Shown: in pieces, positions 20,688-45,203 of the stretch | Position numbering within the stretch: position 1 is the first letter of the stretch | How the letters are laid out: every line of letters starts with the position of its first letter | From: a bacterium | Lineage (GTDB): Bacteria > Margulisbacteria > Marinamargulisbacteria > UBA817 > JAQBTH01 | Direction of reading: 5' to 3' | Length of the DNA: 48,655 nucleotides | NCBI GenBank assembly: GCA_027623425.1 | Contig: JAQBTH010000004.1 | Coordinates: forward strand, 1 to 48,655 | Position numbers and translations under genes: made by a program | The notes under the pieces: generated by a model | The model's database searches: none | Seen by the model: only the letters and a program-made list of their open reading frames with translations | Told to the model about the DNA's origin: nothing

Positions 20688-21440
20688 TTAATCCCCAAAA
20701 TTAAAAAATTGCTCTGCGTTTTGCGTGGTTACATCAATCACTTCTTCAAGTGAGAGTTCTTTTATTTCAGCAATACGCTTGGCCATTTCCACGACAAAGG
20801 CGGGCTCATTTTCAACGCCTCTATAGGCCTCCGGTGTCAGATACGGGCAATCGGTTTCAATCATGATTCGACTCAATGGCATTTGTCTTACCACATCAAT
20901 TACCTTGCCCTTTTTAGCGTAGGTAATAATACCGGTAAATGAGTAATAGGTATCATCAGTCATGACAGATTTTGCAAAGTCCCAATTGCTAGAAAAACAA
21001 TGCACAACCCGGCGCAAATCCGTGTAGTCGTTCAAAATACTTATCATGTCCTCATCAGACTGGCGATTGTGAATCACAATTGGCATATTGTGCGATCTTG
21101 CTAAATCCAATTGCCCGCGAAATACGTGGTGTTGCGCCTCTTTATTCACATCATCATATTTGTAATCTAAGCCCATTTCTCCCATAGCCACATAATTATG
21201 CTGACCATTTAAAATGGATGCGATAGCGTCTAGATCGCCGAACTTTTCATGATATAACGGGTGAATACCAATGGTGGCAGCCACGCGCTTATTTGATTTA
21301 GACACTGCATCACCCCACTGCGCGGACTCTAAATCCACTGCAATATTTATAATTCGTTTAACGCCTGCATCCGCCGCCCGCTTGATAACTGTTTCGCTAT
21401 CATCCTTGCACATATTGATGTGTGCATGTGTATCAATCAC
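20688..21440 (-). CDS. tatD: TatD family metal-dependent DNase
   Basis: TatD proteins are TIM-barrel hydrolases that degrade DNA (3'-5' exonuclease) and take part in DNA repair or turnover. The protein has 250 residues, normal length. Metal-binding motifs are visible: DTHAHINM at the start, ATIGIHPLYH, AMGEMGLDY, MPIVIHNRQ, VVHCFSSNWD and ETDCPYLTPEAYRG. The start is GTG, overlapping the rsmI stop as GTGA. It belongs to the M23-bactofilin-rsmI-tatD-gspF operon. Confidence 0.95.
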   Translation of the reverse strand: MIDTHAHINMCKDDSETVIKRAADAGVKRIINIAVDLESAQWGDAVSKSNKRVAATIGIHPLYHEKFGDLDAIASILNGQHNYVAMGEMGLDYKYDDVNKEAQHHVFRGQLDLARSHNMPIVIHNRQSDEDMISILNDYTDLRRVVHCFSSNWDFAKSVMTDDTYYSFTGIITYAKKGKVIDVVRQMPLSRIMIETDCPYLTPEAYRGVENEPAFVVEMAKRIAEIKELSLEEVIDVTTQNAEQFFNFGD

Positions 21441-22258
21441 TGCGCTTCCACGACCTTATAAAGTGCATTTCGTTTGGCGCCCATGTGGGTGACTCCAAAC
21501 TGCACGATGTCCTTTTTACTGATCCCGGCATCGACTAAGTCTTGCACCCACCCCATTCCAAGTTCATCTTCAGGCTCTGCTTTTTTCATTTCTACCATAA
21601 ATACCCATTCGCCATTGGTGCCTTTAGGGTGGTTTGGGTCGTTCAAATAATCAATTATTTCGTCTAAACTGCGCCAAACACGCTCGTGCATTTTAGTCAG
21701 TTCTTTACCAATAATAAAGTCCGCTACTCCACCGCGCTCTTTCAACCACTCAAGTGTGGATTTAACGCGTTTTCCCGACTCAAAAAACACCATAGGAAGG
21801 TGTGAGTTGGCCACGACAAATTCCTCCGCCTCTTTTGCTTTTCTCGGGAAAAAACCACCAAAGGTGAATGCATTACCAGGTATTTGAGAAATGCTTACCA
21901 ATGCGGTTAAGGATGAAGGGCCAGGAATCGGCTCGATTCTAACACCTTTTTCGGCAATTTTACCCATGATATAGGCACCCGGGTCGCTCAAGTTCGGTGA
22001 ACCTGCATCGGATACTAACGCCACATCATCGCCTGCCTTTAGCACTTTCCAAAGGGTGGCTACGCGCTCTTTTTCATTGAATTTTTGAACGGATACTAAT
22101 GGCGTTTTGAGTCCATAATGCCGTAAAATCTTTTCCGTTACACGGGTGTCCTCGGCAGCAATTAACTTTGCCGACGATAGGGCGTCAATTAAGCGGCCCG
22201 AAATGTCCCCAAGATTACCAATTGGTGTGGCACAACTATACAGAATTCCCGTGCTAAT
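21437..22258 (-). CDS. rsmI: 16S rRNA (cytidine1402-2'-O)-methyltransferase RsmI, non-canonical start
   Basis: RsmI uses S-adenosylmethionine to methylate the 2'-O of C1402 in 16S rRNA. Family motifs run without a break: GILYSCATPIGNLGDISGRL, AAEDTRVTEKILRHYGL, SDAGSPNLSDPG and IPGPSSLTALVS. The frame has no ATG, GTG or TTG between an upstream stop (22265-22267) and the conserved N-terminus. The first GTG is at 22045, about 70 residues inside the domain. Translation must start at ATT 22258 or CTG 22243. ATT 22258 keeps the conserved G-x-L-Y and overlaps the bactofilin stop (ATTAG), which suggests coupling. Starting at 22258 gives 273 residues. Confidence 0.9.
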   Translation of the reverse strand: MSTGILYSCATPIGNLGDISGRLIDALSSAKLIAAEDTRVTEKILRHYGLKTPLVSVQKFNEKERVATLWKVLKAGDDVALVSDAGSPNLSDPGAYIMGKIAEKGVRIEPIPGPSSLTALVSISQIPGNAFTFGGFFPRKAKEAEEFVVANSHLPMVFFESGKRVKSTLEWLKERGGVADFIIGKELTKMHERVWRSLDEIIDYLNDPNHPKGTNGEWVFMVEMKKAEPEDELGMGWVQDLVDAGISKKDIVQFGVTHMGAKRNALYKVVEAQ

Positions 22259-29943: not shown

Positions 29944-31056
29944 TTAAAATAATTCTTGTTGAGGCACGGTGCCGTCGCTACGCTCTGGCATTGAAAGCCC
30001 CAAATGTTCATAGGCTAATCGAGTTGCTAAACGCCCCTTTGGCGTGCGATCGATAAAGCCAAGCTGAAGCAAATACGGCTCGTACACATCTTCAATAGTA
30101 TCACTTTCTTCGGAAATACTCGCGGAAATTGTGTCTATTCCAACTGGACCGCCATTAAACTTTTCAATAATTGCACGTAGGCATTTACGGTCTACGTCAT
30201 CTAAACCCAAGGAATCAATACCCAATGCACTTAGGCCTTCAGCCACAATAGTATCGGTAATTCGTCCGTCGCCTTGCACTTGGGCCCAGTCGCGAACACG
30301 TTTAAGTATACGATTTGCAATACGTGGCGTACCTCGGCTGCGTTTGGCCACTTCCATTGCCGCCGAATCTGTAATGTGAGTTTCTAACAAACTGGCAGCC
30401 CGTGTCACAATTTCTTTTAGCGCGCTAGGGTCATAAAACTCCATGCGTTCCAATGCGCCAAATCGGTCTCGAAGCGGCGCGGATAACATGCCAATTCGGG
30501 TGGTCGCGCCTATTAGTGTAAAACGCTCTAAGGTTAACCGTATACTTCGTGCGGATGGCCCTTTCCCTATTACAATGTCCAATTCATAATCTTCCATCGC
30601 AGGGTACAGTACTTCTTCCACGCTACGATTTAACCGGTGAATTTCATCAATAAATAGCACATCACCCTTTTCAAGGTTGGTAAGAATTGCCGCCAAATCA
30701 CCTGGTCGCTCAATGGCTGGGCCGGAGGTTGTTTTTATATTGACGTTCATTTCGTTGGCCACAATATTGGCAAGGGTTGTTTTTCCCAACCCAGGCGGGC
30801 CATGGATCAATAAATGCTCAAGGCTTTCGTCTCGCTTTTTTGCGGCTTCTATAAATATATTGAGATTGCGAATTAATTTGTGCTGGCCTATAAATTCGTT
30901 TAATGCCCGTGGCCTTAGTGAACCTTCGCGGTGATCTTCTGGGTTAACTTCGCGAGATAAAATGCGAGATTCATCTGGCGTTGCAGATTCCCCAGTTTTA
31001 TCCCACTCTTCCGGGCGTTCATAGTTCTCATTTTGTTGGTTAATGAACTGATCCAT
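29944..31056 (-). CDS. ruvB: Holliday junction branch migration helicase RuvB
   Basis: RuvB is the hexameric motor that drives branch migration with RuvA. Motifs: [20 protein letters not shown] (Walker A), [20 protein letters not shown] (Walker B), [20 protein letters not shown] and the C-terminal winged helix [20 protein letters not shown]. The start is ATG 31056 (370 residues). The frame runs on upstream to 31182, but those 42 codons overlap the next gene and carry no family sequence. An extended -10 (TGC TATTAT) ends 6 nt before this ATG. ruvB-hisB-pyrR-ftsH form a probable operon. Confidence 0.96.
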
Positions 31057-31062
31057 TGCCCA

Positions 31063-31071
31063 ATAATAGCA
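31063..31071 (-). promoter_or_regulatory. Extended -10 element directly before ruvB
   Basis: On the minus strand, TGC precedes TATTAT (31068-31063), which ends 6 nt before the ruvB ATG. This is the same layout as at several other first genes here and points to a leaderless transcript. The -35 is weak. Confidence 0.45.
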
Positions 31072-31090
31072 TATATTTGTACGTGGCGAA

Positions 31091-31885
31091 CTAAGCTGCG
31101 TATTTTGGAATAGCAAAGTGCAATGTGGTGCCCGTTTTATCGGTTTCCATGGTGCATTCACCAAAATGTTCCTGGGACGCATGAATAATAAACTTACTTA
31201 ATAGTTCTTCGCGTTTAAGCTCACTTATCTCTAATTTTGGCGCACTTAACACAATCATATAGTCATAAGGAAACATATCTGACACCGTTTTTTCCATATC
31301 GTATTTGTCGGCATAATCGCTAAACACATAAAAATCTAAAATTAGCTCTTGTTTTGCCACACCATTTTTCTGTGCCACCTCTAACAGTGCGCTGCTGGTT
31401 TCATTTAACATGATCGTAACGCTATCTTTTACTAGCCACACCTTTTCTTCCACACGCAATCGGCTACGCAAACTGGATTCGCCGGTGCAATGCTCTTTAA
31501 TATAGGCCTCCCAACTCTCTCGTATTGTATCCAAATTAACAGACTCCCATTCTTTAGGGCGATGGCTCGGCCGTGGGTTCAAGTTGGCATCTGTAAAAAT
31601 AAACTGCTGGATGTCTGTGAGACGAGGGACTTGCTTAAATAGGATATCAAAGAAGAAATCGGGCTTGGATGCGATCTTTTCTCGGTCCATTTGCCGCATG
31701 ACATCTAATGGCGCAATGATATTTCGAAATTCATGATTGCGTTTACGGATGCTTCGAAGCCGTTTTACAAGCTCAATATTGATATGGCGAAGCGCATGCA
31801 ATTCTTCGATTAAAGACGCCACCGGCCCTCTAATCGTTTTTTGTGCGAACGACTTACTTTTATAAAAAATAAACTCTTCGTCCAT
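31091..31885 (-). CDS. Histidine-kinase-like protein without sensor domain (divergent)
   Basis: I see no close family at first reading. An H-box-like [12 protein letters not shown] starts at H51, after a helical N-terminus and a run of basic residues. The region [20 protein letters not shown] resembles an N box with its Asn. The end, [19 protein letters not shown], resembles the closing strands of the HATPase domain, although the glycine-rich G boxes are not clear. The result is a 264-residue protein with kinase-like layout but no membrane or sensor domain. It is transcribed away from the Pel operon, which holds a stand-alone receiver gene, so the two could be a pair. A strong GAGGAAGGG lies 5 nt before the ATG. 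Confidence 0.5.
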
Positions 31886-31951
31886 GATGACCCTTCCTCA
31901 ATTGCAACTATTCCCTAATATTGCAGATTTTAAACACTAACTTTATCGCTC

Positions 31952-31960
31952 TGATATAAT
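31952..31960 (+). promoter_or_regulatory. Extended -10 element of the Pel operon
   Basis: TGA precedes a perfect TATAAT (31955-31960), and the pelA ATG begins 6 nt later, suggesting a leaderless transcript. No convincing -35 is seen; an extended -10 or an activator could compensate. It lies in the 81-bp gap between the divergent kinase-like gene and pelA. Confidence 0.55.
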
Positions 31961-31966
31961 ATTTTT

Positions 31967-32554
31967 ATGCTGACTTCTCCCATATCGATTCGGCGGCGTT
32001 TTACGCTCGGTTTACTTGTTTTTTGTTTTTCTCTTTTTGGGAATGCGCTAAACGCAGCAGAATCACGAACAGTGTGGGGCGTATATAACAGCGACGAATG
32101 GGAGCCCTTTAGTCGCCCGAACGTGGCGGTGTATTTTGAGCTTCCCCTGAATCACTTGGGCATGAAACTGGAACTGGTGGATGTGGCTAAACCGCTGCCA
32201 GACTTAACTACAACTCCGTTGCCACATGGGATTATTTTGAATGTGCTTGACCTACCAGCGAATCGGGAAGATGCCTACTGGACGTGGGTTGCCGCGTTTC
32301 AGTCGACCAAACGACCCATAGTGTTTCTAGATGGCCTTGGGCCGTCGCATGGGATTCGTGATGACGTGTTGGCGCGATTAAACGTGCGCGTGGGGCCCGT
32401 TTCTAGCCTATACCCCGCCCACATTGACGTGGTGACGCAAGATGCCCGCGCCCTGCCGTTTGAGCGAGAAATTGCGCACGAAACCAAGCAGTTTGGTGAA
32501 ATCCATGCCGATAATGGGATGGCGTTACTGACGTTAATGGGATGGCGTTACTGA
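31967..32554 (+). CDS. pelA: PelA-like protein, N-terminal fragment (broken by 23-bp duplication)
   Basis: A signal peptide (RRRFTLGLLVFCFSLFGNAL, cut near NAAES) sends the protein to the periplasm. The mature part (VWGVYNSDEWEPFSRPNVAV onward) resembles the region of PelA before the deacetylase domain. After residue 189 a perfect 23-bp tandem duplication shifts the frame and the ORF ends six codons later. With one copy removed, the frame joins the next ORF as DNGMALLTLKHTPTG, giving a 698-residue PelA-like protein. No GH114-type glycoside hydrolase domain is seen. The start follows an extended -10 by 6 nt. Confidence 0.7.
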   Translation: MLTSPISIRRRFTLGLLVFCFSLFGNALNAAESRTVWGVYNSDEWEPFSRPNVAVYFELPLNHLGMKLELVDVAKPLPDLTTTPLPHGIILNVLDLPANREDAYWTWVAAFQSTKRPIVFLDGLGPSHGIRDDVLARLNVRVGPVSSLYPAHIDVVTQDARALPFEREIAHETKQFGEIHADNGMALLTLMGWRY

Positions 32555-32558
32555 CGTT
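32513..32558 (+). repeat. Perfect 23-bp tandem duplication splitting pelA
   Basis: The unit AATGGGATGGCGTTACTGAC plus GTT occurs at 32513-32535 and again, without a change, at 32536-32558. Twenty-three is not a multiple of three, so the second copy moves the frame. One copy restores an open 699-codon gene. Confidence 0.97.
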
Positions 32559-34086
32559 AAAACACACACCCACTGGCGCTACGACCTCCCCGGTTGCCAT
32601 TCTTGAAAATGGTGGATTATTGCTTCACGATTATGCCGTTTACCGATCGCCTGCTGGCGTTGCCTGGCACTATTACACGGACCCCTTTTTCTTTTTGAAT
32701 AAGGCCTTGAAACTGAATGACCTTCCTCGGCCAGACATTACTACCATTAATGGGAAGCGCATCTTTTTTACGCATATTGATGGAGATGGGTTTATCAACC
32801 CCACCTACTTTGATAGAGGAATGATGTCTGGTGAATCAATTTACAAGGAAATTTTGACTCGTTATCCCGAAATTCCATTCACCGTATCGGTCATCACCTC
32901 CGAAATTGATCCTAAATATAAGGGGTCTGCCGATAGTCACGCAATGGCACGCCGCCTATTTTTATTGCCAAATGTAGAGGCTGCAACCCACACCTTTTCA
33001 CACCCTTTGATTTGGGACCGCACCATCATTCCAGACTACACCGTGGATAGTTATGGCCGCGAAGTGCGGATTAAAACCTTTTCAAACAACGCCCTACTAA
33101 GCTGGCGACTACCCGGGTATTCTTTTAGCCCTGAGGCCGAAACAATCGGTTCAATACACACAATCAACACGCAATTACTGCCTGAGGGAAAAACAGCACG
33201 GCTTGTGTTGTGGTCTGGTAATACACGGCCAAATGAAACCACATTAAAAGTAACATCTGAGAACGGACTTTTGAATATGAATGGCGGTGATTCGCGATTC
33301 GATCCCACTCGCCCATCGTATCTGGGTGTTTCGCCCTTTTACCGCAAACTTGGAAATTATTACCAAATCTATTCGGCAAATGCCAATGAGAACTTATACA
33401 CGGATTTATGGTCGAAGCAGTTTGGCGCTTTTAAAAATGTGATTCAGACCTTTGAAAACACAGAGTCCCCCAAACGTGTCAGTGCAATGAATGCCTATTA
33501 TCACTTTTACAGCGGCGAGCGACGTTCCTCATTACAAGCCTTACATGTCATTTATAATTACGCGTTAAAATCAGATGCCTTTATGGTGTATGCCAGTCGT
33601 TATGTGCAAACGGTAAATGGTTTTATTTCAACTAAGATTGACCGTATCTCACCGTCTAAATGGCGGGTGTGGGACACTGGAGAATTACGAACAATCCGCT
33701 TTGATTCGACTATGAACGTTGACTTGCCGGCATCAACAGGCGTCATCGGATTTACCCACATAAATGACGCGCTATATGTGCATTTAGACGCGTCTGACAT
33801 TCATACCATCGCATTAACTGACGCGGCACCACAATCGACTTACCTTATCTCAGCGAATCACGACGTGAGCATCATCAAAAACAAACCCAATATGTTGGAA
33901 TTCCGCGCGAGTAATTTGGGCGAGATGGTGGGTGAATGGGGTGGGTTTTTACCAAACAAAAACTATAGTGTGCGCTGGACGGGCAACGTAAATGGGACAT
34001 TGGTTAGCCGAAGCGATGCATTTGGGCGCGTTGCCTATCGTGTACCCGCCACAGGAAATGTAGATGTCAGGATACAAACGTTATGA
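32542..34086 (+). CDS. pelA: PelA-like polysaccharide deacetylase, C-terminal fragment
   Basis: PelA deacetylates the Pel polymer in the periplasm. Deacetylase motifs are visible: FFTHIDGDGFINPTYF for the catalytic Asp and metal site, and ATHTFSHPLIWD with the HxxxH metal pair. The first codon, ATG 32542, lies inside the second copy of the duplication, so this ORF has no signal peptide and would stay in the cytoplasm if made alone. The C-terminal 250 residues are beta-rich and end with WTGNVNGTLVSRSDAFG. The stop overlaps the next gene (ATGA). It is best read as the second part of one broken gene. Confidence 0.75.
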   Translation: MALLTLKHTPTGATTSPVAILENGGLLLHDYAVYRSPAGVAWHYYTDPFFFLNKALKLNDLPRPDITTINGKRIFFTHIDGDGFINPTYFDRGMMSGESIYKEILTRYPEIPFTVSVITSEIDPKYKGSADSHAMARRLFLLPNVEAATHTFSHPLIWDRTIIPDYTVDSYGREVRIKTFSNNALLSWRLPGYSFSPEAETIGSIHTINTQLLPEGKTARLVLWSGNTRPNETTLKVTSENGLLNMNGGDSRFDPTRPSYLGVSPFYRKLGNYYQIYSANANENLYTDLWSKQFGAFKNVIQTFENTESPKRVSAMNAYYHFYSGERRSSLQALHVIYNYALKSDAFMVYASRYVQTVNGFISTKIDRISPSKWRVWDTGELRTIRFDSTMNVDLPASTGVIGFTHINDALYVHLDASDIHTIALTDAAPQSTYLISANHDVSIIKNKPNMLEFRASNLGEMVGEWGGFLPNKNYSVRWTGNVNGTLVSRSDAFGRVAYRVPATGNVDVRIQTL

Positions 34087-36572
34087 GTCGTAGCGGTATT
34101 TTACTTATTATGTTTTTTGGTATTGTCGGTCTTTCGGCGATGCTTTTGTTACCTACGCGTTTTGATCTAGCAGAAGTCTACCAAAAAAGTCATCAATACG
34201 ATAAAGCCGCTGAAATGTTAGAGGATGTACCGTCGCATAATGTAATTCAAGACGCACGCATTGCCATTGCAAAAGCCAAACTATTATACGATTTGGGTGA
34301 CTATGCCAGTGCCAACGCGTCGATTGCGCCCGTGCAACATATGCTCCAATTTAGCAATGACCTTGTGCCGCTGCAACTGGCTCTCGCCCGAGCTCTTACT
34401 GACATCGGCCTACTTATACGCGCTCTTGAGAGATGGATTACGTTACAGCCTAACGATTGGGACGCCCGTGACGAACTAATCGAACTGTACTGGAAGACCC
34501 AACAACCCCAAAACGCGCTGCCTCATATTTTGACCTTACTAAAGGTACAACGCACTCGAGACGATCTTTGGTTGCAACTTGGCACCGCTTACTTGGCAGT
34601 AAATGAACCCATAAAATCGCTCAATGCATTAGAAACAGGGCTTACACGCGTGCCTGATTCCCAGCCATTATGGAGCACCTACAAAACCCATTTAAACGCA
34701 CTGGATCGTCGGGAACGATTGATTACTCTGAACGAACGTCTGATACGGGAAAACCCAGACAATGTAGACCTTTTGATTGAGCAAGGCGCACTTTATGTGG
34801 ATTCCGGGCAACTCGAAGAAGCCCGTCCGTTTCTTGTGCCATTGCTTGCGGTGCGTTCTCAACGAGACGACTTAATATATTATGGGCGCGGTCTTTTCAC
34901 TCAAAAACCCGAAATGGCGCTGCGCTATTTTACGTTTCTAACACAGGCAGCCCCCAACCGCGCTGACATTCGAAACAACTATGACATTGCGCTTCTTGTG
35001 AATTATCAATTCGACACGGCGTATGAGTCTCTTGTGGCTCATGCTGGAAAAACACCATCACCTAGTATTAGTGAACAGTATATAAGTCTGTTATATGAAT
35101 CTGGTCGAGATACAGCGTTTGTATCTGCCCATGTGGATTCTCAGGCCTTTTTAAACATGCCTGAATTGCAATACATTGCTGGCGTGTTTCTTTTAGGAAG
35201 TGGGCAATATTCCCAGGCAGCACAAACTGGGCGCACTCTTAGTTTAACTGACATGCCACAGCGTCGGTATTTTGAATTATGGATGAATGCGTTGGTGGCT
35301 CTTGAATTACCATCTGAATTGGTTAAGGCACTACAGCGATACACATATTTATGGCCCCATGATATTGCTAAACAATTGGAATTAGTCGATGCCTATGAAT
35401 GGAACAATCAATATGGGAAAGCCCAACAATTGATAGGTGAGTTAGAAAAAGAATACCCAAATAACCCACTCATCAATGAACTAGACGCGTCTCGGCGAGT
35501 TGCAGGCGAACCTGTCGGCATGCTGGATTTAGTCGATAATGCCTTAAGCCAAAACCGCTGGATGGACGCTATTTCAATAATTAGAGGCAACACATCGACG
35601 TTAAACGCCGGCGAACGGCAATATGTAAACAGCAAACTATTTGAAATCGCTCAACGCTACACCGTTGATTATGAATTTGGGGTAAACGCCCAAAGTATCG
35701 GGCCAGAATCAGAACGGGATATGGCTTATTCAAGCCATGGAAAATGGCGGCTACCGGGAGCATTTCGACGGGTTTATGTGGGCGCCAAACACTGGTGGCT
35801 GACTACCAGCAGAAGCGGGTTTAACGCCAAACGCCGAGAAGCGGCTCGTTATACGGCTGGATTAACCGGAACAGCGTACCAGATTATGGATTGGGACGTG
35901 GAAGCCGGTGGCTATTCCACATTAACCGAGTCGCCCTTTGCCCGAGCTGAATTGCGTACGCGCCTATCGGGTGGGGGGCAATGGCAGGTATCGCGCAGTC
36001 AAAATGAATTAATGGATTTGCCCTTTGATTTGCCCCTAAACAAATCGGTGGCGGACATTACCAGCACACAATTGTATCTGCCGTTAGGCCAGCGTTTTGC
36101 ACTAAGTGGGCGGCTGGTTCACCGCGATATACGGCAGTCCGAAACCGACCGACTTGCCAGCGACCAGCAGCGTGAATTTGGCATAGATTACAGTGTGTTT
36201 CAGTCGCCATACCGGGGCTATTCCCTGTTGAAATACTGGACGGTTGGTGTGGCGAGCGATCAGTACGACCGCGTGCACCAGGCCGATGGTGCCGTGGTGG
36301 AGCTATTAGACAATCGCAGCTTTGTGCATCTGACCAACAGTCTTCAATGGCAGTGGATGCGCACCCAACTTGTGGGTTATTTTTATTGGGGCATGCCCAC
36401 CTATAAAGAAGGTCATTTTGGTGATGTGGCCGGTGCCACCGCGCAATTCAACATTCTTATTCGCCCCACTTTTGTGTGGCGCACTGAATTTAATGTGGCT
36501 AGCGAAAAATCATTTAGTAATTCCGAAGACTCCTACTTTCGTTTTAGCACTGGGCTGAAGGGTGCTTTATAA
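34083..36572 (+). CDS. pelB: PelB-like TPR and outer-membrane barrel protein
   Basis: PelB carries Pel out through the outer membrane, with periplasmic TPRs that bind PelA. The protein has 829 residues, shorter than the roughly 1190 of Pseudomonas PelB. One N-terminal anchor or signal (residues 4-22) is followed by about 500 residues of TPR-like helices (AEVYQKSHQYDKAAEMLEDV, ASANASIAPVQHML). From about residue 545 the sequence becomes rich in Tyr, Trp and alternating residues (RRVYVGAKHWWLTTSRSGF, YRGYSLLKYWTVGVASDQYD) and ends in FRFSTGLKGAL, as a porin-type barrel would. It overlaps pelA and the receiver gene by a few bases. Confidence 0.78.
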   Translation: MSRSGILLIMFFGIVGLSAMLLLPTRFDLAEVYQKSHQYDKAAEMLEDVPSHNVIQDARIAIAKAKLLYDLGDYASANASIAPVQHMLQFSNDLVPLQLALARALTDIGLLIRALERWITLQPNDWDARDELIELYWKTQQPQNALPHILTLLKVQRTRDDLWLQLGTAYLAVNEPIKSLNALETGLTRVPDSQPLWSTYKTHLNALDRRERLITLNERLIRENPDNVDLLIEQGALYVDSGQLEEARPFLVPLLAVRSQRDDLIYYGRGLFTQKPEMALRYFTFLTQAAPNRADIRNNYDIALLVNYQFDTAYESLVAHAGKTPSPSISEQYISLLYESGRDTAFVSAHVDSQAFLNMPELQYIAGVFLLGSGQYSQAAQTGRTLSLTDMPQRRYFELWMNALVALELPSELVKALQRYTYLWPHDIAKQLELVDAYEWNNQYGKAQQLIGELEKEYPNNPLINELDASRRVAGEPVGMLDLVDNALSQNRWMDAISIIRGNTSTLNAGERQYVNSKLFEIAQRYTVDYEFGVNAQSIGPESERDMAYSSHGKWRLPGAFRRVYVGAKHWWLTTSRSGFNAKRREAARYTAGLTGTAYQIMDWDVEAGGYSTLTESPFARAELRTRLSGGGQWQVSRSQNELMDLPFDLPLNKSVADITSTQLYLPLGQRFALSGRLVHRDIRQSETDRLASDQQREFGIDYSVFQSPYRGYSLLKYWTVGVASDQYDRVHQADGAVVELLDNRSFVHLTNSLQWQWMRTQLVGYFYWGMPTYKEGHFGDVAGATAQFNILIRPTFVWRTEFNVASEKSFSNSEDSYFRFSTGLKGAL

Positions 36573-36958
36573 TGGAGACCATGACCGCATCACTTTTGAT
36601 ATATGATCAAGATTCCGTGGCGACGACTCAAATCGAAGCCGTGTGCCGCCAGTTGGGCATGACCACCTACGTGGCCGAACGCTTTAATGACGCCTTAGCA
36701 TTAGCTAAGGACACCCAACCCCATTTTATTTGTTCCGATTTGCTGATGGATGAGGGGGTTGGGTTTATCTGGCAAGCCAGAAGCGTCATTGAGCGCCCGT
36801 GGGTGCCAGCGGTGCTAAGCGCATACCGCGCGCTTAGCTCCAAAGAGCACCAAACCTTGTATGAATTACGCGCCGAACTCATGCTCAAACCTCTGCTGCC
36901 CCAACGCATCACGTCCATGATATACCAATTAGAAGGAACCCTTGCCCATGCGCACTAA
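36572..36958 (+). CDS. Stand-alone CheY-like receiver domain protein
   Basis: The protein is 128 residues, one REC domain and nothing else. Conserved positions are present: the acidic pair in YDQD (D12, D14), the phosphate-accepting D56 in ICSDLLMDEG, S83 in VLSAY and K106 in MLKPLLPQ. It could take phosphate and act by protein contact. It is encoded between pelB-like and pelD-like genes with overlaps on both sides; classical Pel operons have no receiver gene. A second ATG at 36581 is in frame. A partner kinase is not in the operon, but a kinase-like gene reads away from it upstream of pelA. Confidence 0.82.
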   Translation: METMTASLLIYDQDSVATTQIEAVCRQLGMTTYVAERFNDALALAKDTQPHFICSDLLMDEGVGFIWQARSVIERPWVPAVLSAYRALSSKEHQTLYELRAELMLKPLLPQRITSMIYQLEGTLAHAH

Positions 36959-38348
36959 TCGCTTTAACCCTCGCGCCATCGTTCTCGGCGCGTGCAGTTT
37001 GGCCGTCATTTTAGTTATAAACTGGATCACCCACCCCGAAAATCTGGGGTATATCCACGTGCATCCTCACCCGTTCTGGGTTGTCATTTTACTGATTGCA
37101 TTACGCTACGGCATTCGTGAAAGCGTTGTGCTGTCATTGTGCATTGCAGGGGTGTATTCTGGCTTTATTCTGTTTAACAACAGTGAGCCTTATTTCTTTT
37201 CGAGCATTACATTGTTTAATGATTTTAAAGACCCGTTTCTATTTATTTTGGTTGGTGCGATGGTGGGGGAATTATCCGAGACCAATCAACTTATTCGAAG
37301 ACGCTACAAAGAACGTTTGCGCTTTCGGCACCGGGCGTTCACCAAGTTACGCACCAAGTTTTTAGCAACAGAACAAGCCTTGCAAATCATTAGTGATCGC
37401 ATATCCGGTCAGTTCGCAGACGTGCTGGATTTATTTGATTCTGTATCGGCCACAAAAACCATGAGCGCCGATGCCACTGAAGCCCATATGTTGAACGTTC
37501 TACAACGGTTTTTACATGTAAATTCATTAACTTTATTTTCAGTTACCGGCACCTTGATTGTGCCAAAAGTACATATTCGCAATGGGCAGCCATCAGTAGA
37601 GCAACTACCTAATTTTGATCACGATGTATTAATCCAATCGGTTTTGACTAGCAAAAAGGAAAGCTATTTTGATGTCTTAGACGAAAGCGAATTAACGGCA
37701 CACCAAAGCGATGTTCTGCTAGCTGGCCCTATTTTTAATAGTGAGGGCCACATTACCGGAATTGTCGCTGTTGAAGACATCAATTTTCTTCATTACAACC
37801 CCACTACGTTTAAGCTCTTTCGCATTCTACTAAATTGGTGGGGGCATTTAATTGAAGAGCGCCGATTTTTGGATGAACTTTATGCGCAATATCACCATGA
37901 AGAGCATATCGGCATCCTGCACTACCGCTACTTTTTAAGGCGTGGGAAAATGGAATTTACCCGAGCGACACAATACCATGTCCCACTTACCATTGCCGTT
38001 ATCGAAGTGGAACATCCCGACCGCCTAAATAATTCCTTGTTTAACGAATTAACCTTATCCATATCTCACATTTTCCATTATTTTCTTGAAGAAGTGGAAA
38101 TGATTAGCTTTTATAAATCTATGGGGCAATTTGCCATTCTGTACCCTGCGGTTAGCTCGGATGTGGTTGAAACTCGTCTACAGAAGGTCATCGAAGAAAT
38201 TGATCGCTATGCCCTTCACCCGTATTTAGACACCGATGTGGCACTCACCTTAAAATATGCCATTGCCACCACCCAACGCCAATCAAATTCCTTTTCTGAG
38301 TTATTAGATGAAGTGGATACCAAACTGATTGAGGCAAAGGTTAAATGA
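36948..38348 (+). CDS. pelD: PelD-like inner-membrane regulator (GAF and degenerate GGDEF)
   Basis: PelD is the c-di-GMP receptor of the Pel synthase in Pseudomonas. Here membrane segments occupy about residues 10-107, a coiled helix lies at 115-150, a GAF-like domain at about 180-290, and a GGDEF-like fold at about 325-460. The GGDEF signature is replaced by SMGQF (391-395) in FYKSMGQFAILYP. The positions expected for the RxxD inhibitory site read E382 and M385, so the known c-di-GMP site seems absent. I chose ATG 36948 (AGAAGGA 10 nt upstream) over TTG 36942. It overlaps the receiver gene and pelE. Confidence 0.75.
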   Translation: MRTNRFNPRAIVLGACSLAVILVINWITHPENLGYIHVHPHPFWVVILLIALRYGIRESVVLSLCIAGVYSGFILFNNSEPYFFSSITLFNDFKDPFLFILVGAMVGELSETNQLIRRRYKERLRFRHRAFTKLRTKFLATEQALQIISDRISGQFADVLDLFDSVSATKTMSADATEAHMLNVLQRFLHVNSLTLFSVTGTLIVPKVHIRNGQPSVEQLPNFDHDVLIQSVLTSKKESYFDVLDESELTAHQSDVLLAGPIFNSEGHITGIVAVEDINFLHYNPTTFKLFRILLNWWGHLIEERRFLDELYAQYHHEEHIGILHYRYFLRRGKMEFTRATQYHVPLTIAVIEVEHPDRLNNSLFNELTLSISHIFHYFLEEVEMISFYKSMGQFAILYPAVSSDVVETRLQKVIEEIDRYALHPYLDTDVALTLKYAIATTQRQSNSFSELLDEVDTKLIEAKVK

Positions 38349-39289
38349 CGCATCCGGTTTTAGTAGGTGCCCTGATTGCCTTTAGTGCCTTTTCTTCTGC
38401 GGTAATATACCTGATATGCGGGCTTCTTGGGTTATCACATTTGCGGCTTTTTTATTGTGGCATGGCTATTTTCATTCCGGTTTTAGGCCCGATTTTATCC
38501 CTTACGATGATGATCAATCACCGTATGAGGAATCGGGAATATGCAGGGCACGACACCGATTGGCTTTATGATTATCAGCCCGGTGTAGATACCGCGTCGG
38601 AAGATATTTTCTTTGCCTCTAGCACCGCCCAATTACTGCAAAGGGAATTAATCGTCGAGCCCTATTTTGATATTATCCGTGGGCAAAATACCGCTCTCAA
38701 GCGCGCCCTTATTTCCCGATTAATGCGACAACCATCCCCCATTGCAATCTCAATTTTACGAGAAGCGGTTTCCGACGATTCCTATGGCATCCGTACCTAT
38801 GCCTCCTCAGCGTTACAACAAATCGAAAGCCAATTTCAAACAAGTATTGTGGCATTAAAGACGAAGCTGCGTGACGCTGCGCAAGATGCCGATTTGCGTT
38901 TTGATCTAGTAGCTGCCCATCTTAATTACGTGGAATCTGGCCTGCTTGAAACCCATCTATCGCGCTACTATTTACGGCTAACAGATTCCCTTCTTGAGGG
39001 GTTTAAACCGGATAATTTGAGTCATAAACTTAAGATTCGCTTTTATGAATTATCTGCCAAAAGCGCGCATTTTACTGGCAATGAGGTGCTGCAACACCGT
39101 CATGTGGATGCACTATTAAAATTAGACCCAAAGCACCGAGATGCACTGTTACAACGGTGTCAGCATGCGTTTTCAACACGAGACTTAATTACTCTTAAAA
39201 AAACATGCCTATTGTTAGACGATGATGCGGCAGACCCACAGACACAAGAGGCCGTATTATATTGGACGGGAGCGGAGCAACCCGCATGA
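38345..39289 (+). CDS. pelE: PelE-like membrane-anchored helical repeat protein
   Basis: PelE is an inner-membrane protein with two helices and TPRs that joins PelD in the synthase. This 314-residue protein has two membrane segments (about residues 5-29 and 35-57). A helical repeat region follows (IIRGQNTALKRALISRLMRQ, then AVSDDSYGIRTYASSALQQI and the TPR-like KLDPKHRDALLQRCQ). Length and layout fit PelE, and its place after pelD is the usual order. Sequence identity to known PelE is not obvious, so context carries much of the call. Confidence 0.65.
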   Translation: MTHPVLVGALIAFSAFSSAVIYLICGLLGLSHLRLFYCGMAIFIPVLGPILSLTMMINHRMRNREYAGHDTDWLYDYQPGVDTASEDIFFASSTAQLLQRELIVEPYFDIIRGQNTALKRALISRLMRQPSPIAISILREAVSDDSYGIRTYASSALQQIESQFQTSIVALKTKLRDAAQDADLRFDLVAAHLNYVESGLLETHLSRYYLRLTDSLLEGFKPDNLSHKLKIRFYELSAKSAHFTGNEVLQHRHVDALLKLDPKHRDALLQRCQHAFSTRDLITLKKTCLLLDDDAADPQTQEAVLYWTGAEQPA

Positions 39290-41214
39290 CCCAGACGCCG
39301 CCAGTAAACACTGATTTTAGAGTATTGTTACAAACGGATCGACCTCTGGCCATTATGCAGCTTGAAATGACTAACGATCCTGCTGTATCTGATATTGTGG
39401 ACGATATTATTGACCCAAATGATGCCCAACTTAACCTCGCCTTTCTGCGGCACTTGAGTCATTTACCCTACTTTCACTCATTACCCTATATTGAACCGCG
39501 CCTATATCACGCCAATCATACGGTTAGAAAGGTGGCGTTACGATTGTTTTCTGAAGCGCCGTTTGAACATCGTGAAACGGCAACACTATCGCTATTAAAA
39601 AGCTCGGCCGTTGATATGAAACAATTTGCATTGAAAGAGGTGACGAAAAATAAGGTTCAGTCCTGTTTAAATGACGTACTTGATTTACTAGATGAAAATG
39701 ACGAAGCGCTCCTTTCAAGCGTCGGGCTTTATCTTCAACAGAGTGATTTTCCAGATTTGGCCTCCATGCTATTGGATCGCCTGACGCATAGCAAAGGAAT
39801 TTTGGCGGTTATGCTGCTCAAAACCCTATCCAACCTACCTGGATTTACACGGTGGCGCAAACTTATTCCATATACCCAATCAAAAAACGATGATGTGGTG
39901 GGCGCGGCCTATTTTGCAATTGGTCAGGTTGGCAAACAACGCTCCATTCCTTATTGTTTGGCGCAACTGGACACTGTTTTAAGCGATAATACGGTGCGCG
40001 TCATCATCCAATACATGATGAAATGGCCAAGCCCGGAAGTGATTTCTAAATTTGCTGACATCGCCTTAGGGCATCCTAAATTTCGCATGCGCCTTTTAAT
40101 TAGCGGCGCCTTGGATGACATGAATGAACTGGCGTTATTACGGGGATTCTTAGATATTTTAGATGGTGCATCACCAATTAAACGTCGTGCGTTTGTTCTG
40201 AAAAAACTGGGGGTAAATCGGTTTTCTAGAAGCACTGAATTATTATGTGATGAACTCGCGTTTGAGTGGCGCTGGGAATTACGGCAAGCGGCATTAGAAG
40301 GACTTGTGGACTTGGCTGATATCGATTCCTTTGACGTGCTATTTGATTTGCTACGCCACTCCCCAATTCGAGAAGGGTATTTGGCCATGGCAGCGATTTG
40401 CCGAATGCCGCTCAATCCACTTCAGATCCAAAGCGTCACAAAACTCGTGCAAAACGGGGAATTGGGTGATGGGGTGATTCAGTTATTATTACAACGGTGG
40501 TCTAAAACAACATATGCGCACGAGTGGCCAAACAATTTACATCGCTTTTTATCTGCGCTACTGGGCCATACGAATCCCTATATTCGCGTAGAAGCCGCCC
40601 GTTTATATGCGCAATCCCAGCCCAAAACACAATGGGCGTATTTGTTAGACCGGTACTACGCCGAGCCTTTAGGCACATTGAGAAATGAATTAATTGCGTG
40701 TTTGAATAGGATTTTGCAACATGATATTAGTCCGATTATTCAGGAAATGTTAGGCAATGCGGATTCTGATACCATCCACCATCTTCAAGGGCTTTTAATT
40801 CATATGGAATGGGATCGCAATACGGTAAACCGGGAATTTAAATCATTAATTAAAATAGGAGCGAACTTGCAAGCTCATGAACGACCACGCTTTTATAAGC
40901 GATTATTTAACAGTTCTCCAAACGCAGCAAAAGGCATGATTGTTCGCGGGGAAGCATTGGGTGAAATCGCGCCTATTTTTATCGAAGAGTGGTTGCATTC
41001 TATTTTTCACTTGCATCCCTCTGCACAACCATCGGAATGGAAGACTCTCTTGCAGTACCTACCGACTGCGCAATACCAACATGCATTGCATTATTTTATT
41101 GAACAACGCGCGGATTGGGCGGCTCCGTCCTTTTTCAAGCTTGCCAATACTTGCGAAGACCGTTCTATACGGGCCATTATGCGACAAGGCATTCGTCGGA
41201 TGTTGCAACTATGA
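39286..41214 (+). CDS. HEAT-repeat protein encoded inside the Pel operon
   Basis: The protein has 642 residues from ATG 39286 and almost only alpha-helical repeats of HEAT type, for example HANHTVRKVALRLFSEAPFE, QSKNDDVVGAAYFAIGQVGK and GHTNPYIRVEAARLYAQSQP. There is no signal peptide or membrane helix, so it is cytoplasmic. It lies between pelE and pelF with a 4-base overlap to pelE. I know of no such gene in classical Pel operons. It could be a scaffold or a further relative of PelE, which also has repeats. GCGGAG upstream supports the start; an in-frame TTG at 39262 is less likely. Confidence 0.7.
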   Translation: MTQTPPVNTDFRVLLQTDRPLAIMQLEMTNDPAVSDIVDDIIDPNDAQLNLAFLRHLSHLPYFHSLPYIEPRLYHANHTVRKVALRLFSEAPFEHRETATLSLLKSSAVDMKQFALKEVTKNKVQSCLNDVLDLLDENDEALLSSVGLYLQQSDFPDLASMLLDRLTHSKGILAVMLLKTLSNLPGFTRWRKLIPYTQSKNDDVVGAAYFAIGQVGKQRSIPYCLAQLDTVLSDNTVRVIIQYMMKWPSPEVISKFADIALGHPKFRMRLLISGALDDMNELALLRGFLDILDGASPIKRRAFVLKKLGVNRFSRSTELLCDELAFEWRWELRQAALEGLVDLADIDSFDVLFDLLRHSPIREGYLAMAAICRMPLNPLQIQSVTKLVQNGELGDGVIQLLLQRWSKTTYAHEWPNNLHRFLSALLGHTNPYIRVEAARLYAQSQPKTQWAYLLDRYYAEPLGTLRNELIACLNRILQHDISPIIQEMLGNADSDTIHHLQGLLIHMEWDRNTVNREFKSLIKIGANLQAHERPRFYKRLFNSSPNAAKGMIVRGEALGEIAPIFIEEWLHSIFHLHPSAQPSEWKTLLQYLPTAQYQHALHYFIEQRADWAAPSFFKLANTCEDRSIRAIMRQGIRRMLQL

Positions 41215-41223
41215 GGAATGCAA

Positions 41224-42195
41224 ATGGTTGATGTGTGTTTGGTATTAGAAGGCACCTACCCCTATGTAATGGGGGGCGTTTCTGGGTGGGTGCATCGATT
41301 AATATCCAGCCTACCCAACATACGGTTTTCGTTGTTGTGTGTATTGCCATCTTCAAGTACCTATCAGAGCGCAAAATACCCTATTCCGCAGAATGTGGAA
41401 CAGATTTCTGAAGTTTACATTCAAGATACAGATTTAAGTCGCCGCAGTGGCGGTGGTTTAAAAGCCGACGCGTTAGATGCGCTAGTGACGTTTTATCGAC
41501 AGGCCCAGAAACAGGATTTTTCGTCGTTTGATCGCTTCTATGAGTTGGTTTGTAACCCCGAAACCCGTGGTATTAGCCCTCATGAATTGCTTAATACACA
41601 TACCGGTTGGGAACTATTGCGGCAACTTTATGATGCTGTCGGGGACAACACGTCATTTATCGATTTTTATTGGTCATGGCGTTACGCCCACCTCCCACTG
41701 CTTAATTTGTGCGATGCTCATATTCCCAAAGCGCACATCTATCACCCGATCAGCACTGGTTACGCGGGCCTCGTATCTGTGTTTGCCAAGCAACGCTACA
41801 AACGCCCACTAATCCTAACTGAACACGGCATTTACACGAACGAACGGCGCATCGAAATCGAGCAATCGGAATGGTTCTATGAACAGCAAGACCACAGCCG
41901 CGCGGTGCGCCGCAGTGCAGGTGCATTAAAACGAATATGGACACAGAAGTTTGAATTACTAAGTGCACTTACTTATCGTAATTGCGATGACATTCTAACC
42001 ATCTTCTCTGGCAATCGAAAAATGCAAATTGCAGAGGGTGCGCCCATCGAGAAAACACGGGTTATTCATAACGGCATTTCCATTGAACGTTTTATTGGCC
42101 TATCCAGTCGCCCTTCGCAACCCGATACCTTCCAGGTGGGAATGGTGGGCCGCGTGGTTAGCATTAAAGATATCAAAACTTATACGTGCATGTAA
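41224..42195 (+). CDS. pelF: PelF glycosyltransferase, N-terminal fragment (frameshifted)
   Basis: PelF is the cytosolic GT4 enzyme that polymerises Pel from UDP-sugars. The start is typical: MVDVCLVLEGTYPYVMGGVS. Also visible are LILTEHGIYTNERRIEIEQS and RVIHNGISIERF, ending in VGMVGRVVSIKDIK. There the frame breaks (around 42175-42181) and stops 14 nt later. The family sequence goes on in the +1 frame. I chose ATG 41224 (AGGA 6 nt upstream) over ATG 41218. Removing one A from AAAA, or restoring two bases after ACT, would join the parts. Confidence 0.85.
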   Translation: MVDVCLVLEGTYPYVMGGVSGWVHRLISSLPNIRFSLLCVLPSSSTYQSAKYPIPQNVEQISEVYIQDTDLSRRSGGGLKADALDALVTFYRQAQKQDFSSFDRFYELVCNPETRGISPHELLNTHTGWELLRQLYDAVGDNTSFIDFYWSWRYAHLPLLNLCDAHIPKAHIYHPISTGYAGLVSVFAKQRYKRPLILTEHGIYTNERRIEIEQSEWFYEQQDHSRAVRRSAGALKRIWTQKFELLSALTYRNCDDILTIFSGNRKMQIAEGAPIEKTRVIHNGISIERFIGLSSRPSQPDTFQVGMVGRVVSIKDIKTYTCM

Positions 42196-42694
42196 ACTTG
42201 TTCATGATGCCATCCCCAATACGGAATTCTTTTTATTGGGGCCAATGGATGAAGAGCCCGATTACGTGTCTGACTGCATTCAGCTCGTGGATTCCTTGGG
42301 TTTAGATGACGTGGTGACGTTTGCAGGTCGCGTGCCTGTTTCAGACTGGTACAAAAAATTAGATGTGGTGGTGTTAACAAGCATCAGTGAGGGGCAGCCA
42401 CTTGCGATTATGGAAGCAAACTGTGCGGGCGTGCCTTGCGTTGCAACAGACGTGGGGGCGTGCTCAGAATTATTAAATGGCATTACTCAGGACGATGCCG
42501 CACTTGGGCCGAGTGGTATTATTACCCCTATTGCGAATCCCCGTGCGAGTGCGAATGCGATTATTGAACTGCTCGAAAATGCGCCGTTGCGCAAGAAAAT
42601 GGGGGAAGCCGGAATGGAACGCATACAGCGATTTTACGATGAAGATGATGTGAGTTTTGCATACCTGGATTTATACAGAAAGTACCTTACATAA
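42176..42694 (+). CDS. pelF: PelF glycosyltransferase, C-terminal fragment
   Basis: The frame resumes PelF as LIRACKLVHDAIPNTEFFLL, then VTFAGRVPVSDWYKKLDVVV. It carries the GT4 ExxxxxxxE region SEGQPLAIMEANCAGVPCVA that binds the nucleotide-sugar. There is no start codon at the junction, so this piece is not an independent gene. With the N-terminal fragment the total is about 489 residues, close to the 507 of Pseudomonas PelF. The stop overlaps the pelG ATG (TAATG). Confidence 0.82.
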   Translation, partial: KLIRACKLVHDAIPNTEFFLLGPMDEEPDYVSDCIQLVDSLGLDDVVTFAGRVPVSDWYKKLDVVVLTSISEGQPLAIMEANCAGVPCVATDVGACSELLNGITQDDAALGPSGIITPIANPRASANAIIELLENAPLRKKMGEAGMERIQRFYDEDDVSFAYLDLYRKYLT

Positions 42695-44064
42695 TGGCAG
42701 GCATAGGGTTTCGATTACGGGCGCTTTTAAGCGAAGACACGGTGGCATCAACCATGAAAGCCTATTTGATCGGCGCGGTTGTCTCTAGTGGGCCGTGGTT
42801 AATTACATTTATTGTGTTAGCCGCACTAAACTTTTTACAACTCGGCCATATCGGGTTTAATAACATGATTTTATTTCAAGGCATCTTACTTTATATATTT
42901 GCCTTTACCTTAATTATTGTGGGCATTTTTCAGATGCCCGTTACACGGTATGTGGCCGACCTGATATACAAGCAAGACTTGGAACGCATAGTACCTGTAT
43001 TTGTGGGGGCGGTCTTAACCATTGGCAGCGTGCTTCTTTTGGTGTCTGGTGTGGCGGTATTTAGATTTACGGGTTGGGATTTCCCGCTTCAAGTGGTCAG
43101 CGTGGGCACGTTTGTCATGGTTGGCCTGATATGGGTTGCCATGATATTCATGAGTGCCACAAAAGATTTTATGGCTATTCTACGGGCATTTATTGTGGGT
43201 GGCATTGTGGGGATTGTCGGGGGGTGGGGATTGGGAAATTTGTATTTTGTGCCAGGCTACCTTATGGGATTTTTATTGGGGCAAAGCGTCATTTTTACCA
43301 TGCTCTGCTTTCGTATATTTGAAGAGTTTCCAGTTGATGGGGATTTTGATTTTTCATTTCTAAGTTATATCGTGAAGTTGCCCTATCTGATGTTGGCAGG
43401 CTGGTTGTATCAACTGTCCATTTGGGTGGATAAGTTTGTGTTTTGGTTTAGCAAGGAAGGCAAGGTGGTTAGCCACTTTATTTACGCAAGCCCCATTTAT
43501 GATTACCCATTTTTTCTTGCCTATGTCACCATCATTCCGGCTCTTGCCATTTTTCTAGTGCGCACTGAAACGCACTTTTACGACCATTACCGTGCCTTTT
43601 ATGCGTGCTTAAGTCAAAAGCGGTCATATCGGTCTCTCGAGGCTGAAAAAACAGCATTAATCGCCAGCGTGACTCGCAGCATTTTTCATTTGATACGTAG
43701 GCAAGGATTCATTACGATTTTAGTGATCTTACTTGCCCCACACTTGGTAGGAATTTTAAAATTAGACTGGGTGCAGCTTGGTGTGCTTCGCATTGTGACA
43801 CTTGCCTTATTTTTACAGGTACTGTTCCAGGTACAGCTGACTCTTCTGATGTATTTTGAATGGCACCGATTCGCCGCGTTTTTAACGGCATTGTTCGTGG
43901 TGGTTAATGGCGTGGGAACCTGGCTTAGTCTAAAGGCCGGCTTGGCCTACTACGGATATGGGTATTTTGTGGCGGCATTTTTAGTTTTAATGATTGGCTT
44001 TCCGGTGCTATTTTCTCGCCTTCATCGCTTGGATGAAATCACTCTGATGGGGACGGATGGGTGA
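42694..44064 (+). CDS. pelG: PelG exopolysaccharide transporter (MOP flippase superfamily)
   Basis: PelG is the multi-pass inner-membrane partner of PelF that moves the growing polymer. The protein has 456 residues, normal length, and about 12 hydrophobic segments. The N-terminus AGIGFRLRALLSEDTVASTM and KAYLIGAVVSSGPWLITFIV is characteristic, as is LPYLMLAGWLYQLSIWVDKF in the middle. The start overlaps the pelF stop, and the 3' end runs into the holB region. Confidence 0.93.
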   Translation: MAGIGFRLRALLSEDTVASTMKAYLIGAVVSSGPWLITFIVLAALNFLQLGHIGFNNMILFQGILLYIFAFTLIIVGIFQMPVTRYVADLIYKQDLERIVPVFVGAVLTIGSVLLLVSGVAVFRFTGWDFPLQVVSVGTFVMVGLIWVAMIFMSATKDFMAILRAFIVGGIVGIVGGWGLGNLYFVPGYLMGFLLGQSVIFTMLCFRIFEEFPVDGDFDFSFLSYIVKLPYLMLAGWLYQLSIWVDKFVFWFSKEGKVVSHFIYASPIYDYPFFLAYVTIIPALAIFLVRTETHFYDHYRAFYACLSQKRSYRSLEAEKTALIASVTRSIFHLIRRQGFITILVILLAPHLVGILKLDWVQLGVLRIVTLALFLQVLFQVQLTLLMYFEWHRFAAFLTALFVVVNGVGTWLSLKAGLAYYGYGYFVAAFLVLMIGFPVLFSRLHRLDEITLMGTDG

Positions 44065-44069
44065 GTCTT

Positions 44070-44078
44070 TGCTATACT
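44070..44078 (+). promoter_or_regulatory. Extended -10 element of holB
   Basis: TGC precedes TATACT (44073-44078), and ATG 44087 follows after 8 nt, again suggesting a leaderless transcript. It lies at the very end of pelG and its downstream edge. Confidence 0.5.
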
Positions 44079-44086
44079 CGGGTCAC

Positions 44087-44848
44087 ATGATTGAGCGGAT
44101 TAAACTAATTTTGGATGGCATGTTAAACACGGGTAATTTACCCAATGGTTTAGTGCTTGCTAGCGCGCAAGACGCCGACCGCGAGACGGCTGCCCACTAC
44201 ATTGGCATGGGTGCGTTATGTGACACCGAAACACCTGGGCCGTGTGGCACCTGTTCCCATTGCATACGGGCTAAAAAGGGCGCTCACCCAGATTATTATT
44301 TTCACCCCTTTGAATCGGCCATCAAAGTCGAAGACATCCGTACCATTCGTACGGCAATACAATATGGGCCGACTGAGGCAAAATCCATGATGGTTATTCT
44401 TCATAATGCTCATGAAATGACGGCTTCGGCACAAAACGCACTTTTAAAAAGCTTGGAAGAGCCACCAGCAGGGGTGCATTTTATTTTGACCACCGATAAC
44501 GCGATGAAACTACTATCGACCATTCGCTCTCGTTCGTTTTTACTCGACATTCCTAGCGTGGCGCCAGGTTCACAAATCCCCATAGACCAACTACCAGTGG
44601 CCTATTCACCACTACCCGAATTTATGTTGAAGTCCGATTCGGCAAAATTAGACTATGCTCAAGAACTCGCCTCAGACAAGGAATTCGTGCGTAGCGTGTT
44701 GTTGCACTGGCTGTATGATGCCAGCCGTAGCGCCACTATGGATGAGATCGGATCAAAACGACTGGAATTAATCATTTCCACACTGTCCAATATGCAGTAT
44801 AATCTTAACACGCGTCTCCAAATGGAGTCGCTGGTGCTGCAATTGTAG
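44087..44848 (+). CDS. holB: DNA polymerase III delta' subunit-like protein
   Basis: The delta' subunit is part of the clamp loader. A zinc module is present (LCDTETPGPCGTCSHCIRAK), followed by HPDYYFHPFESAIKVEDIRT and the AAA-like sensor region ALLKSLEEPPAGVHFILTTD with SRSF. The P-loop position reads LASAQDADRETAA and lacks the GxxGxGKT motif, as expected for delta'. Length from ATG 44087 is 253 residues, shorter than the usual 300 or more because the C-terminal domain is reduced. An ATG at 44057 is also in frame but lies upstream of the -10. Confidence 0.82.
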   Translation: MIERIKLILDGMLNTGNLPNGLVLASAQDADRETAAHYIGMGALCDTETPGPCGTCSHCIRAKKGAHPDYYFHPFESAIKVEDIRTIRTAIQYGPTEAKSMMVILHNAHEMTASAQNALLKSLEEPPAGVHFILTTDNAMKLLSTIRSRSFLLDIPSVAPGSQIPIDQLPVAYSPLPEFMLKSDSAKLDYAQELASDKEFVRSVLLHWLYDASRSATMDEIGSKRLELIISTLSNMQYNLNTRLQMESLVLQL

Positions 44849-44861
44849 CAGGTGGTTGGTA

Positions 44862-45203
44862 ATGAGTTGTTTATTTTGTAATATCGTGTCCGGAAACATC
44901 CCCGCAAGTACAGTTTTTGAATCAAAAGACGTCTTGGCATTTAGGGATATTGCCCCTCAGGCGCCAGTGCATATACTGGTCATTCCAAAGCAACATATTA
45001 CAAGCGCGCATGAGGTTCATGCGCTAACTCCTTCCCCATTACCCGCTATATTTGACGCAATCCATCACATCGCTGAAGAGTTAAATCTATCTGATGCGGG
45101 GTATAGGATTGTCACGAATGTGGGTAATGATGGTGGACAAACAGTGTCCCATCTTCATTTTCACATTCTAGGTGGACGCAGCATGCAATGGCCACCCGGC
45201 TAA
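44862..45203 (+). CDS. HIT family (HINT-like) nucleotide-binding hydrolase
   Basis: HINT proteins hydrolyse purine nucleoside phosphoramidates. The protein has 113 residues. Family features: CLFCNIVSGNIPASTVFESK at the start, VHILVIPKQHI, and the histidine triad SHLHFHILGGRSMQWPPG with H at alternate positions. AGGTGG lies 7 nt before ATG 44862. A TTG 6 nt upstream is less likely. The gene follows holB by 13 nt and precedes rpsU by 18 nt. Confidence 0.95.
   Translation: MSCLFCNIVSGNIPASTVFESKDVLAFRDIAPQAPVHILVIPKQHITSAHEVHALTPSPLPAIFDAIHHIAEELNLSDAGYRIVTNVGNDGGQTVSHLHFHILGGRSMQWPPG

What the first reader, a model, noticed from the sequence alone, without database searches (positions are those of the whole stretch)
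32513..32558. Perfect 23-bp tandem duplication that switches pelA off
Two identical 23-bp units, side by side, shift the frame of pelA and split it into a fragment with a signal peptide and a cytoplasmic deacetylase fragment. With one unit the gene is open over 699 codons. An unworn duplication of this kind can revert by slippage in one step, so it could act as an on/off switch for Pel, or be a very recent mutation or assembly fault.
Basis: partly seen in the sequence, partly recalled or inferred. Interest (0 to 1): 0.72.

Follow-up and report, generated by a model that had tools for sequence, protein, structure and literature searches.

The report
Recent duplication breaking a biofilm gene
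A 23-letter stretch of DNA copied twice in a row breaks a biofilm-sugar gene in an uncultured bacterium; because a second gene of the same pathway is broken separately and the same kind of copying error breaks unrelated genes in this genome, it looks like fresh mutational damage rather than a dedicated on/off switch.

Summary
A perfect 23-bp tandem duplication (array 32512-32560, 2.13 copies) splits pelA into two frames. A relative (L098) carries the stretch once: its spacing is exactly 23 nt shorter. The switch reading is not supported, for three reasons. (1) pelF, 9.6 kb downstream in the same cluster, has its own frameshift at about 42170-42183. All 29 homologues keep one frame there, and the NCBIfam PelF model is cut into 1-324 and 321-489. 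Losing one pelA unit would therefore not restore Pel in one step. (2) The array has only two copies and 3 nt of end homology; it is not a built-up repeat tract. (3) In 1.31 Mb of this genome, three perfect tandem arrays have a period of at least 13 that is not a multiple of 3. All three split an ORF: pelA (23 bp), an apbE (34 bp, confirmed by intact homologues) and an ankyrin-protein gene (16 bp). This points to a general duplication process, or an assembly problem, not a pel device. No split genes appeared in about 54,600 aa compared with order-level relatives, so indel errors are not pervasive. Best reading: recent slippage-type loss of function in a Pel locus starting to decay. Assembly artefact is the main rival; only raw reads can decide.

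The parts
32512..32560 (+). perfect 23-bp tandem array, 2.13 copies, 3-nt TAA at both ends
31967..32554 (+). pelA fragment 1 (195 aa): signal-like N-terminus plus part of the mixed alpha/beta region; stops inside the second unit
   Evidence: weak match to PelA 9cgy 255-360
32542..34086 (+). pelA fragment 2 (514 aa): PelA deacetylase region without a signal peptide; HIDGDG at 32773-32790 and HTFSHP at 32989-33006 intact
   Evidence: (PelA 9cgy 409-821, E 7.9e-70)
34083..36572 (+). pelB-like TPR protein, open
36572..36958 (+). response-regulator receiver-like gene inside the cluster (weak matches only)
36942..38348 (+). pelD-like gene, open
38345..39289 (+). pelE-like gene, open
39262..41214 (+). 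HEAT-repeat protein inside the cluster, open
41218..42195 (+). pelF fragment 1 (PelF model positions 1-324)
42029..42694 (+). pelF fragment 2 (frame as listed by the ORF listing; homology begins near 42170; PelF model positions 321-489)
42170..42183 (+). second, independent frameshift, in pelF, at a short A/T-rich stretch
42694..44064 (+). pelG, open (PF16933, E 1.6e-120)

Best explanation
A recent spontaneous tandem duplication of 23 bp, made by replication slippage or a similar short-homology event between TAA triplets 23 nt apart, shifted the frame of pelA. It separates the exported N-terminus from the deacetylase domain, so no exported PelA deacetylase is made. pelF, the Pel glycosyltransferase gene, carries an independent small frameshift. 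The sequenced population therefore most likely makes no Pel, and the locus is at the start of decay. Shown: the duplication, both frame breaks, that relatives have open genes at these points, and that the same kind of lesion occurs in an apbE gene (and probably an ankyrin-protein gene) of this genome. Inferred: the slippage mechanism, that both lesions are real in the cells, and the loss of Pel.
For: The array is perfect and unique. In L098 PelA is one open frame, and the spacing between the matched ends is 54 nt against 77 nt here, a difference of exactly 23. pelF is cut at model positions 321-324, and all 29 loci hit by both halves keep one frame across that point. A frameshift scan against order-level relatives found 0 split genes in 54,556 aa, while relatives' PelF gave the split in 5 of 5 positive controls. 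If two lesions were spread uniformly, the chance of both falling in pel is about 0.005. The other pel genes are open and the deacetylase motifs are intact, so the damage looks young. Three of three perfect arrays with period at least 13 and not a multiple of 3 split an ORF; the apbE case is confirmed by single-frame homologues in G008 and G011.
Against: There are no raw reads, so the lesions could be assembly or consensus faults. No other genome among 74 of the phylum matched pelA2 or pelG, so neither age nor fixation can be measured. The control genes in the frameshift scan are conserved ones under strong selection, so the contrast with pel is biased upwards. Mismatch-repair genes mutS and mutL are present and open, so a mutator state through their loss does not explain the lesions.
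Confidence: 0.6

Rival explanations
1. Assembly or library artefact: the second unit, and perhaps the pelF frameshift, are not in the cells.
For: The genome is a 119-contig draft, 90% complete. Three frame-breaking perfect duplications of unrelated genes could share an artefactual cause. End homology is only 1-3 nt.
Against: There are no N runs in 1.31 Mb, so no sign of scaffold joins. Unit lengths differ (16, 23, 34), so no fixed k-mer overlap. A de Bruijn assembler has no cycle to repeat in a single-unit sequence whose only internal repeat at these ends is 3 nt (reasoning). No split genes in 54,556 aa of compared genes.
Confidence: 0.25
2. Reversible switch: one-step loss or gain of the 23-bp unit turns Pel off and on (contingency-locus behaviour), as described for pneumococcal capsule genes.
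For: Perfect two-unit arrays can lose a unit in one step (established knowledge). Spontaneous duplications in cap8E and tts, and in the type 3 capsule locus, are reported to cause phase variation (titles of Waite 2001 and 2003, cited in PMC4022640; the papers themselves are not held).
Against: pelF carries a second frameshift. There is no repeat tract beyond two copies. The same lesion type occurs in unrelated genes. No second genome is available to show recurrence.
Confidence: 0.08
3. The split genes still work as two polypeptides, with pelA2 made by coupled restart at the ATG that overlaps the end of the pelA1 frame.
For: ATG 32542 lies 10 nt before the pelA1 stop codon, and the deacetylase motifs are intact. 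A deacetylase PelA without a fused hydrolase exists (B. cereus PelADA, abstract of PMC13254593).
Against: pelA2 has no signal peptide, while PelA acts in the periplasm (PMC12022489). No ribosome-binding site is evident before 32542. The pelF split falls at the start of the C-terminal glycosyltransferase domain. All 29 homologues of pelF keep one frame there.
Confidence: 0.05

Closest known systems
Spontaneous tandem duplications in pneumococcal capsule genes (type 3 locus, cap8E, tts)
   Same: A random short duplication inside the ORF of a polysaccharide gene, loss of the sugar, reversible in principle.
   Different: There phase variation was the reported finding (titles only; papers not held). 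Here reversion is untested, a second gene is broken, and the polymer is Pel in an uncultured bacterium.
pel exopolysaccharide locus (pelABCDEFG of Pseudomonas aeruginosa and relatives)
   Same: PelA deacetylase, PelB-like TPR, PelD, PelE, PelF and PelG homologues in one cluster.
   Different: No hydrolase domain detected in PelA, no pelC found, additional receiver-like and HEAT-repeat genes, and pelA and pelF both frameshifted.
Simple-sequence-repeat phase-variable (contingency) loci
   Same: Frame change by change in copy number of a tandem unit inside an ORF.
   Different: Two copies of a 23-bp unit rather than a hypermutable tract of short units; reversibility and rate unknown.

Membership tests
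Phase-variable locus (criteria in PMC11868660) | Switching by variation in a single locus | tested here: not met
   The pelF frameshift means the pelA change alone would not restore the pathway, if the pelF lesion is real.
Phase-variable locus (criteria in PMC11868660) | Reversible switching | not testable with these tools
   Needs reads, strains or culture; none available.
Phase-variable locus (criteria in PMC11868660) | Minimal switching rate, variants detectable without selection | not testable with these tools
   No population data. The array has only two copies.
Pneumococcal-type duplication inactivation | Perfect short tandem duplication inside the ORF that shifts the frame, absent from an intact relative | tested here: met
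Pneumococcal-type duplication inactivation | Reversion to the open gene by loss of one unit | not testable with these tools
   No reads, strains or culture.
pel locus | PelF and PelG homologues encoded together | tested here: met
   PelF NF038011, E 6.1e-83 and 3.2e-50 for the halves; PelG PF16933, E 1.6e-120.
pel locus | PelA deacetylase with metal-binding D-x-D and H-x3-H motifs | tested here: met
   pelA2 matches PelA 9cgy 409-821; HIDGDG and HTFSHP present.
pel locus | PelA N-terminal glycoside hydrolase domain | tested here: inconclusive
   pelA1 (195 aa) is too short for it and only weakly matches chain residues 255-360 of 9cgy (E 0.05). L098, at 683 aa, is similarly short.
pel locus | All genes open | tested here: not met
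   pelA and pelF are frameshifted.

The most novel reading that the evidence does not exclude
This lineage suffers unusually frequent perfect short tandem duplications (16-34 bp, 1-3 nt end homology) that reversibly silence dispensable genes across the genome (pelA, apbE, an ankyrin-protein gene): a diffuse, sequence-unspecific form of reversible gene silencing in an uncultured bacterial phylum.
Probability: 0.07. Interest if true: 0.6.

Novelty: new member of a known kind. Interest (0 to 1): 0.27.

Why it matters
It shows that a striking single-gene repeat should be judged against the rest of its operon and genome before it is called a switch. It also flags a draft genome in which three genes carry the same kind of perfect frame-breaking duplication, so read mapping there would tell whether short tandem duplications are a live source of reversible variation in natural populations or an artefact that mis-annotates draft genomes.

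Tried and rejected
Mutator state through loss of mismatch repair: mutS and mutL are present and open. Pervasive indel errors: 0 split genes in 54,556 aa. Fixed-k assembler overlap: unit lengths 16, 23 and 34, no N runs. Programmed frameshift in pelA: no slippery heptamer of the X-XXY-YYZ type in the array (read). TGA read as sense: the pelA1 frame would still meet TAA two codons later. Another copy of pelA in the assembly: none. Split-ORF geometry at 7-8-bp repeats in L072, L069 and L052: read as ordinary gene borders, by eye, not tested by homology. A scan of viral contigs for a 32-base stretch at the site found nothing. No RNA family in 31000-45000. Adding fragment 1 to the PelA alignment failed, so pairwise hits were used instead.

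Full report
Observation. The window holds a perfect tandem array at 32512-32560: the 23-bp unit TAATGGGATGGCGTTACTGACGT twice, plus TAA. The unit occurs nowhere else in the window at up to three mismatches or, exactly, in the rest of the assembly. A first-order Markov null gave no perfect array of period 13 or more in five simulations of 1.3 Mb. The frame change is real: pelA1 (31967-32554) runs out in the second unit, and pelA2 (32542-34086) is open in another frame. 2120 nt minus 23 is 2097 nt, or 699 codons with the stop.

What the gene is. pelA2 matches the solved PelA chain 9cgy over chain residues 409-821 (E 7.9e-70) and keeps the metal-site motifs HIDGDG and HTFSHP; the paper on PelA names two D and two H residues as required for the esterase activity (PMC12022489), and I take these motifs to be the equivalents. 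pelA1 matches the same chain only weakly (residues 255-360, E 0.052). Together they look like a PelA with the mixed alpha/beta and deacetylase parts but no detected hydrolase domain, like L098 (683 aa). The cluster continues with pelB-like, receiver-like, pelD-like, pelE-like, HEAT-repeat, pelF and pelG genes. It is the only pelG found in 74 genomes of the phylum, and no other genome there matched pelA2.

Relatives have one unit. In L098 both pelA halves match one open frame. The distance between the matched ends is 54 nt there and 77 nt in the window, a difference of 23. The duplication is therefore most simply derived in this lineage. This rests on one relative in which the divergent N-terminal half could be matched; other relatives match pelA2 only.

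A second lesion. Fragment 1 (41218-42195) covers positions 1-324 of the NCBIfam PelF model, and fragment 2 covers 321-489. Twenty-nine loci from other bacteria match both halves, and in all of them the two matches lie in one frame across the break (positions). Five relatives' PelF proteins tested one by one show the split in the window at 42170-42183. The break lies in an A/T-rich stretch and is a small length change that moves the frame. A loss of one pelA unit would therefore not restore Pel in one step.

Genome-wide control. I read 1.31 Mb of the 1.86-Mb assembly (no N runs). Of twelve perfect arrays with period of at least 13, three have a period that is not a multiple of 3, and all three sit where one ORF ends and another begins in the frame that the insert predicts. 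For all arrays of period 5 or more whose period is not a multiple of 3 the rate of this geometry is 35 of 1280, so three of three would be about 2e-5 by chance. Besides pelA they are a 34-bp duplication in an apbE (L033:7470-7538, minus strand) and a 16-bp duplication in an ankyrin-protein gene (L011:11827-11859). In apbE, fragment A matches PF02424, and both fragments match one frame of homologues in G008 and G011. The third case has no homologue test. Against order-level relatives no split gene was found in 54,556 aa, so the assembly is not full of indels. Those control genes are conserved, however, and pseudogenes are expected to be rarer among them.

Mechanism. The ends of the arrays share 3, 1 and 1 nt, so the duplications did not arise from existing long repeats. 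Slippage at very short homology, or a comparable copying event, is the simplest cause; this is inference. Mismatch repair genes are present. A de Bruijn assembler has no reason to double a stretch that lacks internal repeats, but artefacts cannot be excluded without reads.

Comparison with the known. Spontaneous duplications inside pneumococcal capsule genes have been described as causes of phase variation (Waite 2001 and 2003, known here from titles cited in PMC4022640; the papers are not held). The anatomy is the same, but the reversible behaviour is not shown here. A recent review lists single-locus change, reversibility and a minimal switching rate as criteria (PMC11868660). The first is not met because of pelF, and the others cannot be tested.

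Verdict. Most likely this is a recent loss-of-function duplication in a Pel locus that also carries a second break. Assembly artefact is the main rival and a dedicated switch is unlikely.

Noticed in passing
   Followed up: yes
L033:7470-7538 (G000 contig 28): 34-bp perfect tandem duplication splits an apbE-family gene; homologues in G008 and G011 have one frame across the site.
   Followed up: yes
L011:11827-11859 (G000 contig 6): 16-bp perfect tandem duplication at the border of two frames of a large ankyrin-repeat protein gene.
   Followed up: partly
window 21437-22256: The frame of rsmI (minus strand) is open and rsmI-like well upstream of the first listed start, but offers only ATT or CTG as possible starts there, overlapping the bactofilin stop.
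   Followed up: no
window 36572-36958 and 39262-41214: Receiver-like and HEAT-repeat genes embedded in the pel cluster, not part of the canonical pelABCDEFG set.
   Followed up: no
L064:4212-4304 and other loci: Dispersed palindromic element containing GACTTGATCCGGGATC, 7 copies in 1.31 Mb, three of them in L064.
   Followed up: partly
L097 about 9114-9117: In one search the pelF1 match in this Pseudoalteromonas locus changes frame near here, so this relative's pelF may carry a frameshift of its own at another place.
   Followed up: no
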